This document shows, one piece after another, positions 1,736 to 8,182 of a stretch of DNA of 33,314 nt (positions are counted from its first letter, which is position 1; each line of letters starts with the position of its first letter). The notes under the pieces were generated by a model, which saw nothing but the letters and a program-made list of their open reading frames with translations, was not told where the DNA came from and ran no database searches. The DNA is from Nitrospirales bacterium. Lineage in GTDB: Bacteria; Nitrospirota; Nitrospiria; Nitrospirales; UBA8639. A program made the position numbers and the translations under genes. The DNA lies in NCBI GenBank assembly GCA_021604105.1, contig BQIW01000049.1, forward strand, positions 1 to 33,314, in the 5' to 3' direction.

Positions 1736-2845
1736 TTATTGGCCGAGATTGATCTCATACCGTGTGCTGCGGCCGCCACCTACCGGAATGAGTGCGCCTT
1801 GTTCCACCAGGTTCTGTAAATCCCGTGTGGCTGTCGCTTTGGAGGTGTGGGCGATGGCCATATATTTTTTGGCATTCATCCCGCCTGTGAATCCGCTTGG
1901 GCCTTCTTCCAGGATCCGGCGCACCACCTCCATCTGTCGTGAATTGAGTTGGTCTTTGAGGCGATCGAAAAATTTCGTTTTTCGCAAGGTGAATTCAATC
2001 TGCTCTTCTGCCTGATGTTGCGCAGCCAGTGCCATGTGTACAAACCAGCTGATCCAGGGTGTGATGTGGTTGGATTGTTGGGCATTCTGCAAGGCTTCAT
2101 AATAGTGTGAGCGGTTCGCCTCAATGGCACGAGAGAGGCTGAGCAAAGCCGGCCGCCCGAGACCTTGCGATAATGCTTTTTCCGACAGGGCGCGCCCGAT
2201 GCGGCCGTTTCCGTCCTCAAATGGGTGGATGGATTCAAAATATATATGGGCGATGGCGGAGCGGATCAGGGGTTTTTTGATGTCCTTGGTGCCCTGTGGG
2301 CCGGTTTCATTAAACCAGGTGATGAACCGTGACATTTCTTTGGATACCCGGGTTGAGGGCGGGGCTTCAAAATGAATGCGGGGTTTGCCGATCGGGCCGG
2401 ATACCACCTGCATGGGTTCCGCATGGCTTCGCCATTTCCCGACGGTGATGCCACGACTCCCTTGCATGATCATGCGGTGCCAGGAACAGAGGGTGTCTTT
2501 GGTCAGCGCACCGGCATACCTGTTGCGTACATCCGTCATGAGCGCGGCAGCTCCTTGCGCCCGTTGATCCCGCACCTGTTCGCCGGGCTGTCCCAGTCCA
2601 AGATTTTTACGGATGGAGGAGAGGACATCCTGACGACTCAAATATTCACCTTCAATTTCTGATGTCTTGAGCGCTTCCACGACCATCATCTCGATGATGG
2701 CTTCCGTCTGCGTCTCTTCCGGTAATCCGCTCAATAGGCCGCTGGCTCTTCCTGTTTTTTCGGCGAATGCCAGTAAGGCGTCCTCAACGGTGGTGAGTTC
2801 GTATTGGAAGTCCGGCCAGTCCGGTTGTTGCCAGTTATAGGTCAT
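1736..2845 (-). CDS. Fic family protein with DUF4172 N-terminus and winged-helix C-terminus
   Basis: A Fic-domain enzyme of 369 residues, expected to transfer AMP (or another nucleotide part) from ATP to a protein hydroxyl group. The catalytic motif HPFEDGNGRIGR is intact near residue 205. An N-terminal inhibitory motif of the S/TxxxE-G/N type, TSEIEG, is present near residue 65, which makes it a self-inhibited class II Fic. The N-terminus (TYNWQQPDWPDF) matches DUF4172. The C-terminus (KYMAIAHTSKATATRDLQNL, then GGGRSTRYEI) is a winged-helix DNA-binding domain. The ATG at 2845 was chosen because the family N-terminus begins there; the open frame runs on upstream into repeat copy B but is not conserved. 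There is no Shine-Dalgarno sequence, and a -10 box lies only 6 bases upstream. Two palindromes sit directly in front of the gene, which suggests self-regulation through the winged helix (inference). Confidence 0.9.
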   Translation of the reverse strand: MTYNWQQPDWPDFQYELTTVEDALLAFAEKTGRASGLLSGLPEETQTEAIIEMMVVEALKTSEIEGEYLSRQDVLSSIRKNLGLGQPGEQVRDQRAQGAAALMTDVRNRYAGALTKDTLCSWHRMIMQGSRGITVGKWRSHAEPMQVVSGPIGKPRIHFEAPPSTRVSKEMSRFITWFNETGPQGTKDIKKPLIRSAIAHIYFESIHPFEDGNGRIGRALSEKALSQGLGRPALLSLSRAIEANRSHYYEALQNAQQSNHITPWISWFVHMALAAQHQAEEQIEFTLRKTKFFDRLKDQLNSRQMEVVRRILEEGPSGFTGGMNAKKYMAIAHTSKATATRDLQNLVEQGALIPVGGGRSTRYEINLGQ

Positions 2846-2917
2846 GAGCCGATTGTACCATACATTCGGCTCAATAGAGTGGAATAAAGTGAGCTGAATA
2901 GACCTTTTATTCGGCTC
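2846..2917 (-). promoter_or_regulatory. Twin palindromic operator and leaderless promoter of the Fic gene
   Basis: Two 27-bp palindromes of the same design lie here. At 2846-2872, GAGCCGATT and ATTCGGCTC are separated by 9 bases. At 2891-2917, GAGCTGAAT and ATTCGGCTC are separated by 9 bases. The first ends at the base before the ATG and covers an extended -10 box (minus strand TGGTACAAT; hexamer 2857-2852). With 6 bases between the -10 box and the ATG, transcription probably starts at or next to the start codon. A protein bound here would block the promoter. Confidence 0.65.
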
Positions 2918-2947
2918 AGCCCGTGCCGGGACATTTTTCAGTGCATG

Positions 2948-3140
2948 CCGGGGTTTCGCCCCCGGACGACGAGGTTCTTTTGTTTCGGCAAAAGGACCCA
3001 AATCCATTGACGCCCCGTCTGGCCTCATTGAAGAGGAGGGGCGCGAACTTTTTGCAGAGCGGCCCAACTCGCAAGGCTCACACAAGGGCCGCCGGATGCG
3101 AAGAGCGTCCCTCCTGGGAGCCAGCCGGCAGGCGTCGGAA
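2948..3140 (+). repeat. Structured dispersed repeat, copy B
   Basis: Same architecture as copy A. Stem I has TTTCGC in its loop. Stem II is slightly damaged (GTTCTTTTG against CAAAAGGAC), and stem III has one mismatch. It lies about 100 bases upstream of the Fic start codon. Confidence 0.9.
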
Positions 3141-3350: not shown

Positions 3351-4289
3351 TTACCTTCTATTTTGTGAGACCGTCTGTCGGGTGGTGCGGCTCCTTCCCT
3401 GTGGTTTCCTCCGGTGTTTGTTGCCTCGTAGTATTTTGTTGTTGACCCATTCCTGTAATGCTATCCATACGGTATCCTCCCCGCTGCCGTCTCGCCTTGC
3501 CCCTTGCGCACACGTCAGAATCTCTTGATACGATCGCACATGGAACGGGACCTGATCCTGTCTGACCGTCCGGGTGAATGCGCTCCATTCAGGGGCTTTG
3601 ACCTTTTGGGCCATGGGCAGATCGGCGCTGTCCGCATAGACGATGACCACCGCCGGTTGCTTATTTTTTTGCCGGGCCAGCTTATAGGCCACGACGAGAG
3701 TGCGCATCCATTGGTAGGCCGGTCCCGCGAATGGACAGGGGTGGTAATCGGTTTGGGCATCGAGATGAAAGACTTTTGGAATGATGTCCCAATACTGAAT
3801 GTCTTTTTCGCTTAAGGCGCAACGACTGGTGATGTCGATTTCTCGCGTGGCTTGCTGCACATAGTTTCCGTTGCACGGGGCGGAGCCATTGCGCCGCACC
3901 GTTTGCGAGCACGCCCCTCCATCCTGCTCCGTAAATTTACATTCAAAAAAGATCACGGAATGGGGATTTTCCGCATAGACATCCACTTGGGTCGGGCGCG
4001 GTTCATTGAGCAATGACGGGCGCGCGCGCCATTCCAAGGTGATCTCCCAGGGACCGCCGGCCGGTACCCCCAGATTGGTTGCCAGGGCATCGAGAATCGC
4101 ATCGCAATCCGATGAAGTTTTGATGGTGCCGAAGACATCGATCGCTAAGGCTTGGGATGAATGCCTCACATGCGTATCGATAGCCCCTCCCCGGCCTTTG
4201 TGCCACGGAAATGTTTCCCATGGTTCACAGGCTCGTTGCGCAGGAGGGAAGATATTGCGTTCAAGGCGTGTTCTGGTGGCGTGGTCCAT
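3351..4289 (-). CDS. PD-(D/E)XK nuclease-like protein, PGN_0703-type putative restriction endonuclease
   Basis: A 312-residue protein with a recognisable PD-(D/E)XK core: QVDVYAENPHSVIFFECKFT gives Asp103, then Glu116 and Lys118. The cysteine segment that follows (GGACSQT and PCNGNYVQQ) matches my memory of the PGN_0703 family of putative restriction endonucleases, so I assign it there tentatively. Such enzymes are expected to cut DNA in the cytoplasm using Mg2+. No methyltransferase or specificity gene is next to it, so it may be a solitary nuclease. The C-terminus is very basic (HRRKPQGRSRTTRQ), which may bind nucleic acid. A GAAGG sequence lies about 9 bases upstream of the ATG. The gene sits alone between repeat copies B and C. 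Confidence 0.65.
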   Translation of the reverse strand: MDHATRTRLERNIFPPAQRACEPWETFPWHKGRGGAIDTHVRHSSQALAIDVFGTIKTSSDCDAILDALATNLGVPAGGPWEITLEWRARPSLLNEPRPTQVDVYAENPHSVIFFECKFTEQDGGACSQTVRRNGSAPCNGNYVQQATREIDITSRCALSEKDIQYWDIIPKVFHLDAQTDYHPCPFAGPAYQWMRTLVVAYKLARQKNKQPAVVIVYADSADLPMAQKVKAPEWSAFTRTVRQDQVPFHVRSYQEILTCAQGARRDGSGEDTVWIALQEWVNNKILRGNKHRRKPQGRSRTTRQTVSQNRR

Positions 4290-4549: not shown

Positions 4550-4740
4550 CCGGGGTTTCGACCCCGGACGCCGAGGTCCTTTTCTTTCGGGAAAAGGACC
4601 CAAAACCATTGACGCCCCGTCTGGTCTCATTGAAGAGGAGGGACACGAACTCTTGAAGAGCGGCCCAACTCGCGGGGCTCAAACAAGGGCCGCTAGCTGC
4701 GAAGAGCGTCCCTCCTCGGGACCAGCCGGCAGGCGTCGGA
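4550..4740 (+). repeat. Structured dispersed repeat, copy C
   Basis: Stem II reads GGTCCTTTTC/GAAAAGGACC, with the closing G-C pair of other copies swapped to C-G. Stem III reads CTGGTC/GACCAG where copy A has CTGGCT/AGCCAG. Both changes keep the pairing. The preceding 4290-4549 holds no gene I can support. Confidence 0.9.
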
Positions 4741-4847: not shown

Positions 4848-5038
4848 CCGGGGTTTCGACCCCGGACGCCGAGGTCCTTTTCTTTCGGGAAAAGGACCCA
4901 AAACCATTGACGCCCCGTCTGGCCTCATTGAAGAGGAGGGACGCGAACTCTTGAAGAGCGGCCCAACTCGCGGGGCTCAAACAAGGGCCGCTAGCTGCGA
5001 AGAGCGTCCCTCCTTAGCGCCAGCCGCCGGGCGTCGGA
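4848..5038 (+). repeat. Structured dispersed repeat, copy D
   Basis: Nearly identical to copy C through stems I, II and IV, only about 110 bases downstream of it, so probably a recent tandem duplication. The upstream flank TCGGAAAGATGGGAAGG also resembles the flank of copy H (7966-7982), so the duplicated unit may be longer than the repeat itself. Confidence 0.9.
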
Positions 5039-5238: not shown

Positions 5239-5631
5239 TTAAGAGATTTTTTCTTCCGAATCTTCACTGGACTCACCAAGACGAACCTGGCGAAAATGTC
5301 CGGGACTCGCGACCGTGAAAAAGCCTTGTAGCTTCGGCTGAGATGAAAAGAAGATCTGCAAAAACGACATCTGCTCAATAGGAGATTGTCCGCCCAGACG
5401 AAACAAGACAATGCCGGGAGCAGACTGTTGCCGACAACGAAACACCAGTTCGCCAAAATCACGATCGAAAGTCAGCAACACACGAGATTGAGTTACGGCT
5501 TCGCGTAACACCTCCTCATCGGAAGCCGCCATTAGTGACTCCGCTGCATACAGGACATCGTGGCCGTGCGTTCGAAGTAATTTGACGATTGAGGCAGGAA
5601 AATTTTCGTCGGCAAGATACCGTTCACTCAT
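5239..5631 (-). CDS. DUF5615 PIN-like toxin
   Basis: A 130-residue protein of the DUF5615 (Mut7-C/PIN-like) family. It starts with the acidic signature YLADENFP and has a second acidic cluster, LLTFDRDFGELV, near residue 55; together these form the expected metal-binding site of a PIN-type RNase. The following segments (APGIVLFRL and the stretch after it) fit the family. It overlaps the upstream DUF433 gene by four bases (ATGA at 5631-5628), so the pair is translationally coupled in the order antitoxin, toxin. The last 15 residues are acidic and serine-rich and not conserved. RNase activity is inferred from the family. Confidence 0.85.
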   Translation of the reverse strand: MSERYLADENFPASIVKLLRTHGHDVLYAAESLMAASDEEVLREAVTQSRVLLTFDRDFGELVFRCRQQSAPGIVLFRLGGQSPIEQMSFLQIFFSSQPKLQGFFTVASPGHFRQVRLGESSEDSEEKIS

Positions 5632-5882
5632 GCGGACGTTCCGGTCGGCGGCAGCAAATAGAACCGTTCCTCCCGGAAGATTTCCGCAGCATACGCCAGC
5701 ACAGCACGAATGCGATCCTCAGTCAGGTTGGGGTAATTGTCACATAACGCAGTTTGGTCCCATCCTGCCGCCAGCAAATCAAGCACGAACTCTACAGACA
5801 GACGAGTTCCCTTGAGAGCTGGTTTTCCACCCAAAATTGCTGGATCGGACACGATGTAGTCTCGCCAATTAATGGCGGGCAT
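5628..5882 (-). CDS. DUF433 antitoxin
   Basis: An 84-residue protein with the DUF433 core: IVSDPAILGGKPALKGTRLS, then a helix-turn-helix-like stretch (EFVLDLLAAGWDQTALCDNY followed by PNLTEDRIRAVLAYA). DUF433 proteins are the usual partners of DUF5615 toxins and probably bind the operon promoter. The start is well fixed by AAGGAGG seven bases before the ATG. This pair is the one complete toxin-antitoxin module in the accessory region. Repeat copy E lies about 170 bases upstream. Confidence 0.88.
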   Translation of the reverse strand: MPAINWRDYIVSDPAILGGKPALKGTRLSVEFVLDLLAAGWDQTALCDNYPNLTEDRIRAVLAYAAEIFREERFYLLPPTGTSA

Positions 5883-6051: not shown

Positions 6052-6242
6052 CCGGGGTTTCGGCCCCGGACGACGAGCCACTTTTGTTTCGGCAAAAGTG
6101 GCCAAAACCAGTAACGCCCCGTCTGGCTTTATTGCAGAGGAGGGACGCCAACCCGAAACAGAGCGGCCCAACTCGCCAGGCTCAAACAAGGGCCGCCAGA
6201 TGCGAAGAGCGTCCCTCCTGTGAGCCAGCCGGAAGGCGTCGG
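6052..6242 (+). repeat. Structured dispersed repeat, copy E
   Basis: It has a GCCACTTTTG/CAAAAGTGGC stem II and CTGGCT/AGCCAG in stem III, like copy A. The tip region differs (CAACCCGAAACAGAG in place of GAACTCTTTGAAGAG), so the small apical hairpin is lost in this copy. Confidence 0.9.
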
Positions 6243-7486: not shown

Positions 7487-7680
7487 CCGGGGTTTCGTCC
7501 CCGGACGACGAGGTCCTTTTGTTTCGGCAAAAGGACCCAAAACCATTGACGCCCCGGCTGGCCTTATTGAAGAGGAGGGACGCTAATCCTGAGAGAAGAG
7601 CGGCCCAACTCGCCTGGCTCAAACAAGGTCCGCCAGATGCGCAGAGCGTCCCTCCTTTGGGCCAGCCGGCAGGCGTCGGA
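7487..7680 (+). repeat. Structured dispersed repeat, copy F
   Basis: It has GGTCCTTTTG/CAAAAGGACC in stem II and CTGGCC/GGCCAG in stem III. A short broken start of a further copy (GCCGGGTTTCGGCCGGGGA) lies just upstream at 7429-7447. Confidence 0.9.
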
Positions 7681-7759
7681 CAACGTAGAAGAGGAATTTT
7701 TAAGGGATTTCCATGAAAGTGGGAGAAGCGCAGGGAGGATAGAGAGGGGAAGAACGAGG

Positions 7760-7950
7760 CCGGGGTTTCGGCCAGGCAGCCGAGCCACTTTGGTTTCGGT
7801 CAAAGTGGCCAAACCCATTGACGCCCCGGCTGGCCTCATTGGAGGGGAGGGACGCGAACTCTTTGAAGAGCGGCCCAACTCGCCGGGCTCAAACAAGGGC
7901 CGCCAGATGCGCAGAGCGTCTCTCCCTGGGGCCAGCCGGCAGGCGTCGGA
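7760..7950 (+). repeat. Structured dispersed repeat, copy G
   Basis: Stem I is broken (CCGGGG against CCAGGC). Stem II is GCCACTTTGG/TCAAAGTGGC, where a T-A pair of copy A is a G-C pair. Stem III is CTGGCC/GGCCAG. Copies F, G and H are packed within 700 bases with no gene between them. Confidence 0.9.
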
Positions 7951-7993
7951 TGTCTACCAAACAATGTCGGAATGATGGGAAGGTTTTTAGATC

Positions 7994-8182
7994 CCGGGGT
8001 TTCGTCCCCGGACGCCGAGGTCCTTTTGTTTCGACAAAAGGACCCAAAACCATTGACGCCCCGGCTGGCCTTATTGAAGCGGAGGGACGCGAACTCTTTG
8101 AAGAGCGGCCCAACTCGCCGGGCTCAGACAAGGTCCGCTAAATATTAAGAGCGTCCCTCCCTGGGGCCAGCCGGCAGGCGTC
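7994..8182 (+). repeat. Structured dispersed repeat, copy H
   Basis: The last copy in the window. It has a perfect stem I with a TTTCGT loop, a perfect 10-bp stem II with a TTTCGA loop, a perfect stem III arm (CCGGCTGGCC/GGCCAGCCGG) and a perfect stem IV (GGAGGGACGC/GCGTCCCTCC). Confidence 0.9.

What the first reader, a model, noticed from the sequence alone, without database searches (positions are those of the whole stretch)
2846..2917. Paired 27-bp palindromes in front of a Fic gene
Two palindromes of identical design (9-bp arms, 9-bp spacer, centres 45 bp apart) end exactly at the start codon and overlap the -10 box. The protein has a C-terminal winged helix. Together they suggest a Fic enzyme that represses its own promoter, perhaps controlled by its catalytic state. 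Self-regulation would link nucleotide transfer with transcription in one protein.
Basis: partly seen in the sequence, partly recalled or inferred. Interest (0 to 1): 0.68.

Follow-up and report, generated by a model that had tools for sequence, protein, structure and literature searches.

The report
Fic enzyme's paired self-operator palindromes
Two matching DNA palindromes sit on the promoter of a gene for a protein-modifying (Fic) enzyme, and comparison of about 130 related genes shows that the enzyme's own DNA-binding tail almost certainly recognises them and switches its own gene down, with the DNA signal and the reading residues changing together through evolution.

Summary
Two 27-bp palindromes (GAGCCGAWT-N9-AWTCGGCTC; 2846-2872 and 2891-2917; centres 45 bp apart) lie in front of a minus-strand DUF4172-Fic-winged-helix gene; the proximal one abuts the ATG and contains the -10 hexamer. 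They are not chance. A search by palindrome led to Fic genes in several phyla. A search by protein led back to palindromes: one with at least 9 of 10 pairs lies upstream of 84% of 68 homologues, against 2-3.5% in controls. In 14 relatives carrying the gene, near-perfect sites occur only at this promoter. The design is constant but the arm sequence comes in four classes (GAGCCGAAT, GAGTTATAG, GATGCGAAT, GCGGAGATT), each matching a particular recognition helix and wing. Class A is shared by two separate clades with the same helix (SKATATR). Pair spacings differ by about one DNA turn. Best reading: a self-repressing class II Fic enzyme binding as dimers at two phased operators. In the window's clade the -10 lies at -12 to -7 of the ATG without a Shine-Dalgarno, predicting a leaderless mRNA. 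Autorepression by a Fic is known (CccR); this operator family and its apparent specificity code I found in no paper searched. Coupling of catalysis to DNA binding remains untested.

The parts
1736..2845 (-). Fic gene, 369 aa: DUF4172 (aa 3-84) with inhibitory motif TSEIEG (aa 61-66), Fic domain with HPFEDGNGRIGR (aa 207-218), C-terminal wHTH (aa 302-365; recognition helix about aa 335-348, wing GGGRSTRY)
   Evidence: Pfam PF13776, PF02661, PF22168; closest solved structure Coxiella CbFic2 8CIL by sequence and fold, 36% identity; AF2 model pLDDT 92.8
2846..2872 (-). Proximal operator palindrome O1 (GAGCCGAATGTATGGTACAATCGGCTC), abuts the ATG, covers the -10 and adjoins the predicted transcription start
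2891..2917 (-). Distal operator palindrome O2 (GAGCCGAATAAAAGGTCTATTCAGCTC), centre 45 bp upstream of O1
2852..2857 (-). -10 hexamer TACAAT inside O1, at -12..-7 relative to the A of the ATG
   Evidence: sequence; TATAAT-like at the same position in 22 of 33 relatives of this clade
2859..2860 (-). TG of an extended -10 (TGnTACAAT)
   Evidence: sequence; 'tg' conserved in at least half of 18 Nitrospirota homologues
2843..2845 (-). ATG start codon; predicted transcription start = A at 2845, i.e. leaderless mRNA
   Evidence: position of the -10; no Shine-Dalgarno-like motif in 33 of 33 genes of this clade; inference

Best explanation
The palindromes are the self-operators of a class II (DUF4172) Fic adenylyltransferase that is its own transcription repressor. 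Two wHTH domains of a dimer read the two 9-bp arms of one palindrome. A second dimer sits on the upstream palindrome, on the same face of the helix. The proximal dimer covers the extended -10 and the start region and so blocks RNA polymerase when enough protein is present. In this clade the mRNA is predicted to be leaderless, which explains why the palindrome ends exactly at the ATG. Shown by computation: the sites, their conservation, their uniqueness in the genome and their matching to the wHTH sequence. Inferred: binding, dimers, repression, leaderless start. By analogy only: DNA occupancy also shifts the enzyme between AMPylating and inhibited or de-AMPylating states, as reported for CbFic2.
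For: Searching by palindrome leads to Fic: 68 of 118 exact-pattern loci have a homologous Fic gene within 250 bp, and the others are lost-Fic scars, terminator-like hairpins or unassigned. Searching by protein leads to palindromes: 84% versus 2-3.5% in controls, second palindrome at least 8/10 in 75% versus 2%. Near-perfect (0-1 mismatch) sites in 14 Fic-bearing Nitrospirota genomes lie only at the Fic promoter. Four operator classes match four wHTH types: A SKATATR/GGGRSTRY, B SRATATR/GELKHTRY, C SMPTAQR/GGSKNTSY, D S(Q/P)DTALR/GGGRSTSY. On a tree without the wHTH, class A is two separate groups (AU p 0.005) that share operator and helix. Typical pair spacings 34, 44-45 and 54-55 share one helical phase. 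Catalytic motif, inhibitory Glu and key wHTH residues are invariant together. Precedents: CccR (PMC9755527) and CbFic2 (PMC10628234).
Against: No binding or expression data. Most class A members outside Nitrospirota were collected by the motif itself. Operator-class changes are few, so a sign test on independent pairs has no power. No canonical -35. In the gamma clade the palindromes lie further upstream of the ATG, so the overlap with the start codon is not universal. Some homologues (for example L166) show no clear pair.
Confidence: 0.87

Rival explanations
1. The palindromes bind some other host regulator that controls the Fic gene.
For: Palindromes alone do not name their reader.
Against: The site occurs with Fic homologues across Nitrospirota, Bacteroidota, Verrucomicrobiota, Planctomycetota and Pseudomonadota and, near-perfect, nowhere else in the Nitrospirota genomes that carry the gene. 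The arm sequence changes with the Fic protein's own recognition helix and wing.
Confidence: 0.06
2. The palindromes act as RNA hairpins (attenuator, terminator or ribosome-site lock).
For: Inverted repeats next to a start codon; identical arms do occur as terminator-like hairpins elsewhere (15 loci).
Against: No T-run or terminator here. O1 covers the -10, so it is not transcribed if the predicted start is right. Two phased copies and fixed arm sequence with variable spacer fit protein binding. In the gamma clade both copies usually lie upstream of a separate leader.
Confidence: 0.03
3. The protein activates rather than represses, or the palindromes are mainly an allosteric switch: operator-bound dimer is inhibited or de-AMPylating, free protein AMPylates.
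For: CbFic2 dimerises on DNA of 20 bp or longer and is proposed to switch to de-AMPylation (PMC10628234); catalytic motif, inhibitory Glu and wHTH are conserved together.
Against: A site over the -10 and start codon is a repressor position. In CccR, regulation and toxicity were reported as independent (PMC9755527). Two sites per chromosome could hold only a few molecules.
Confidence: 0.25
4. Chance or compositional artefact.
For: Short palindromes are common.
Confidence: 0.005

Closest known systems
CccR of Yersinia pseudotuberculosis (PMC9755527)
   Same: Class II Fic with a C-terminal HTH that represses its own promoter through an inverted repeat near the -35 and -10 boxes; dimer needed for repression.
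   Different: Operator AGATAATCAT-N26-ATGATAATCT, one widely spaced palindrome, against two copies of GAGCCGAAT-N9-ATTCGGCTC. CccR is also a secreted toxin; secretion was not examined here.
CbFic2 of Coxiella burnetii (PMC10628234, PDB 8CIL)
   Same: Closest solved structure: DUF4172-Fic-wHTH, TSxIEG and HPFxDGNGRIGR motifs, about 36% identity over the whole length. DNA of 20 bp or more promotes dimerisation.
   Different: Random DNA was used there and no operator was identified. Recognition helix (SRTTAYR) differs from class A, so another operator sequence is expected. CbFic2 is described as acting on host histones.
SoFic of Shewanella oneidensis (3EQX, 3ZCN)
   Same: Fic with inhibitory helix and C-terminal winged helix.
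   Different: About 20% identity; the window protein fails the NCBIfam SoFic equivalog cut-off (67 of 550 bits). DNA binding not demonstrated for SoFic (PMC10628234).
Type II toxin-antitoxin autoregulation (phd-doc) and type IV abiE
   Same: Toxin-like enzyme with operator palindromes at its promoter.
   Different: Here inhibitor, enzyme and DNA-binding parts are in one chain.

Membership tests
Class II Fic of the DUF4172 / CbFic2 type | DUF4172 and Fic/DOC domains above Pfam cut-offs | tested here: met
   (85 and 67.8 bits)
Class II Fic of the DUF4172 / CbFic2 type | Active-site motif HPFx[D/E]GN[G/K]RxxR | tested here: met
   HPFEDGNGRIGR, core invariant in alignment A2
Class II Fic of the DUF4172 / CbFic2 type | N-terminal inhibitory helix [S/T]xxxE[G/N] | tested here: met
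   TSEIEG, aa 61-66; E65 invariant
Class II Fic of the DUF4172 / CbFic2 type | C-terminal wHTH, full-length fold like 8CIL | tested here: met
   PF22168; Foldseek E 3.6e-24, TM 0.86
Class II Fic of the DUF4172 / CbFic2 type | AMPylation and de-AMPylation activity | not testable with these tools
   -
CccR-type Fic autorepressor | Palindromic operator at its own promoter near -10/-35 | tested here: met
CccR-type Fic autorepressor | Operator AGATAATCAT-N26-ATGATAATCT | tested here: not met
   different arms, spacer and copy number
CccR-type Fic autorepressor | Repression by the protein itself | not testable with these tools
   needs reporter or gel-shift assays
SoFic equivalog (NF046030) | Score above 550 bits | tested here: not met
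   67.2 bits
Two-gene type II toxin-antitoxin module | Adjacent antitoxin gene in the same operon | tested here: inconclusive
   No recurrent partner seen next to the Fic gene in the window or annotated loci; small ORFs were not tested systematically

The most novel reading that the evidence does not exclude
The operator is also an allosteric ligand: on its own promoter the Fic dimer is held inhibited or de-AMPylating, and loss of the operator-bound state (excess protein, damaged, replicating or missing DNA) both frees AMPylating enzyme and derepresses the gene, so that one protein measures its own DNA. The helix/wing to operator code would then define orthogonal, non-cross-talking Fic circuits across bacteria.
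Probability: 0.25. Interest if true: 0.78.

Novelty: new variant of a known kind. Interest (0 to 1): 0.6.

Why it matters
For CbFic2, the closest relative with a solved structure, it was left open whether DNA binding is specific and what it is for. This work supplies specific predicted operators for a family spread over several phyla, shows that they track the DNA-reading residues, and so makes it directly testable whether operator DNA, rather than any DNA, controls AMPylation and de-AMPylation. It also gives four naturally matched repressor/operator pairs of one fold for studying wHTH specificity.

Tried and rejected
Viral contigs and phage records gave no relatives, so a phage origin is not supported. 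A sign test of helix/operator covariation on independent pairs has no power. Motif sites without Fic were examined: seven in Pseudomonas lie at the xseB-esterase locus where other Pseudomonas carry the Fic gene, three precede hsdM (one Pseudomonas has operator-Fic-hsdM), 15 look like terminators, one precedes a Fic fragment (L116), and about 20 remain unassigned. A literature search for the operator letters listed only unrelated papers among the 15 shown. The regulon idea was rejected: no further near-perfect sites.

Full report
What is there. The window gene at 1736-2845 (minus strand) encodes a 369-aa protein with DUF4172, Fic/DOC and DIP2311-like C-terminal domains. Its AlphaFold2 model is confident throughout (mean pLDDT 92.8) and its best structural match over the full length is Coxiella CbFic2 (8CIL, E 3.6e-24, 36% identity). 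Motifs TSEIEG and HPFEDGNGRIGR mark a class II Fic with its inhibitory helix and active site intact; the key residues of both are kept in all 35 aligned relatives. A mechanical ORF runs further upstream from a TTG through the palindromes, but homologues begin at MxYNWQ, i.e. at 2845.

The palindromes. They are as described: 2846-2872 and 2891-2917, 9-nt arms, 9-nt spacers, one arm mismatch each, centres 45 bp apart. The orthologue in another genome of the genus (93% identical protein) keeps all 40 arm bases, including the odd CAGCTC arm, while 5 of 18 spacer and 5 of 16 linker bases differ.

Two-way association. An exact search for GAGCCGAAT-N8-10-ATTCGGCTC in 84,980 genomes stopped at 118 loci; my rough estimate of chance matches in that collection is about 11. 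68 loci have a homologous Fic gene within 250 bp, most with two copies. To avoid circularity I then sampled by protein only: 97 relatives, about 300 genomes of the phylum and a spread of 20 of the 445 plasmids with a match. In 68 full-length homologues a palindrome finder that knows no sequence found a palindrome of at least 9/10 pairs in 84% (2.2% in shuffles) and a second of at least 8/10 in 75% (2.0%); random stretches of the same loci gave 3.5%.

Operator classes and the reading residues. The design is fixed but the arm is not. Class A GAGCCGAAT (window), B GAGTTATAG, C GATGCGAAT, D GCGGAGATT. The start of the recognition helix and the wing go with the class: A SKATATR (73 of 80) and mostly GGGRSTRY; B SRATATR and GE(L/R)(K/R)(H/Y)TRY; C SMPTAQR and GGSKNTSY (6 of 7); D S(Q/P/A)DTAxR and mostly xGGRSTSY. 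Class B proteins are closer to the window protein overall (about 48%) than the gamma class A proteins (37-39%), yet carry another operator. A tree of residues 1-290, without the wHTH, splits class A into groups, the main ones lying next to B and next to C/D; keeping class A together is rejected (AU p 0.005). Operator type therefore follows the DNA-reading part rather than the enzyme as a whole. Caveats: few independent changes, and many class A members outside Nitrospirota were found by motif.

Geometry. Typical centre spacings are 44-45 (A in Nitrospirota, Bacteroidota and others), 34 (A in gamma), 45 (B), 54 (C), 34 and 54-55 (D): the same phase of a 10-10.5 bp repeat (Rayleigh p about 0.004 on six class modes that I chose, so indicative only). 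This suits dimers on one face of the DNA. Arm centres 18 bp apart fit the report that 20-bp DNA could span a CbFic2 dimer (PMC10628234).

Promoter and start. In the window's clade a TATAAT-like hexamer lies at exactly -12..-7 from the A of the ATG in 22 of 33 genes, often as TGnTATAAT, and none of the 33 has a Shine-Dalgarno-like motif. Those are the usual coordinates of a -10 relative to a transcription start at the ATG (established knowledge of sigma-70 promoters), so I predict a leaderless mRNA. In the gamma clade the pair lies further upstream with a leader.

Targets. In the own genome and 14 relatives with the gene sites with 0-1 mismatch lie only at the Fic promoter; among the eight control genomes without a close homologue, two had one such site each. 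Orphan operators in Pseudomonas sit where relatives carry the Fic gene, as expected for promoters left behind after gene loss.

Comparison with what is known. CccR is a Fic that represses its own promoter through AGATAATCAT-N26-ATGATAATCT (PMC9755527). CbFic2 binds DNA through its wHTH and changes activity, but random DNA was used and specificity was left open (PMC10628234). The present system works like CccR in logic, belongs to the CbFic2 domain type, and differs from both in operator. I found no paper on this operator family, within an open-access library only.

What remains open: direct binding, direction of regulation, start site, and any link between catalysis and DNA. I did not fetch the upstream DNA of the Coxiella effector gene as a yardstick.

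Noticed in passing
window 2943-3138 (also 1326-1519, 4550-4739, 4848-5037, 6052-6242, 7487-7679, 7759-7949, 7991-8182): A dispersed repeat of about 190 bp with some 44 near-full-length copies (76-90% identity) in this genome, clustered on a few contigs and around the Fic and toxin-antitoxin-like genes; it creates spurious ORFs in several frames.
   Followed up: partly
window 5239-5882 (-): DUF433 plus DUF5615 (Mut7-C-like) gene pair, a probable toxin-antitoxin module; REase-ARP nuclease at 3351-4289 (-).
   Followed up: no
L108 1076-2731; L037 336, L048 7406, L105 5676: In one Pseudomonas the order is operator-Fic-hsdM (type I restriction-modification); in three other genomes the same operator directly precedes hsdM with no Fic gene found nearby, so the operator may drive restriction genes.
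   Followed up: partly
L008, L012, L059, L085, L095, L106, L006: Orphan class A palindromes at the xseB-esterase locus of Pseudomonas, where related strains carry the Fic gene: probable scars of gene loss.
   Followed up: yes
L002 (G000:C10 about 52.5-53.3 kb), L145: Distant, SoFic-like Fic genes of this and a related genome have their own perfect palindromes of similar design upstream (CCTAAAATAA-N9-TTATTTTAGG; TTGAAAGAAT-N8-ATTCTTTCAA), hinting that self-operators extend to that branch.
   Followed up: partly
L146 (G058:C6 about 825 kb): Fic remnant: both operators kept, catalytic domain lost, wHTH-coding part remaining.
   Followed up: no
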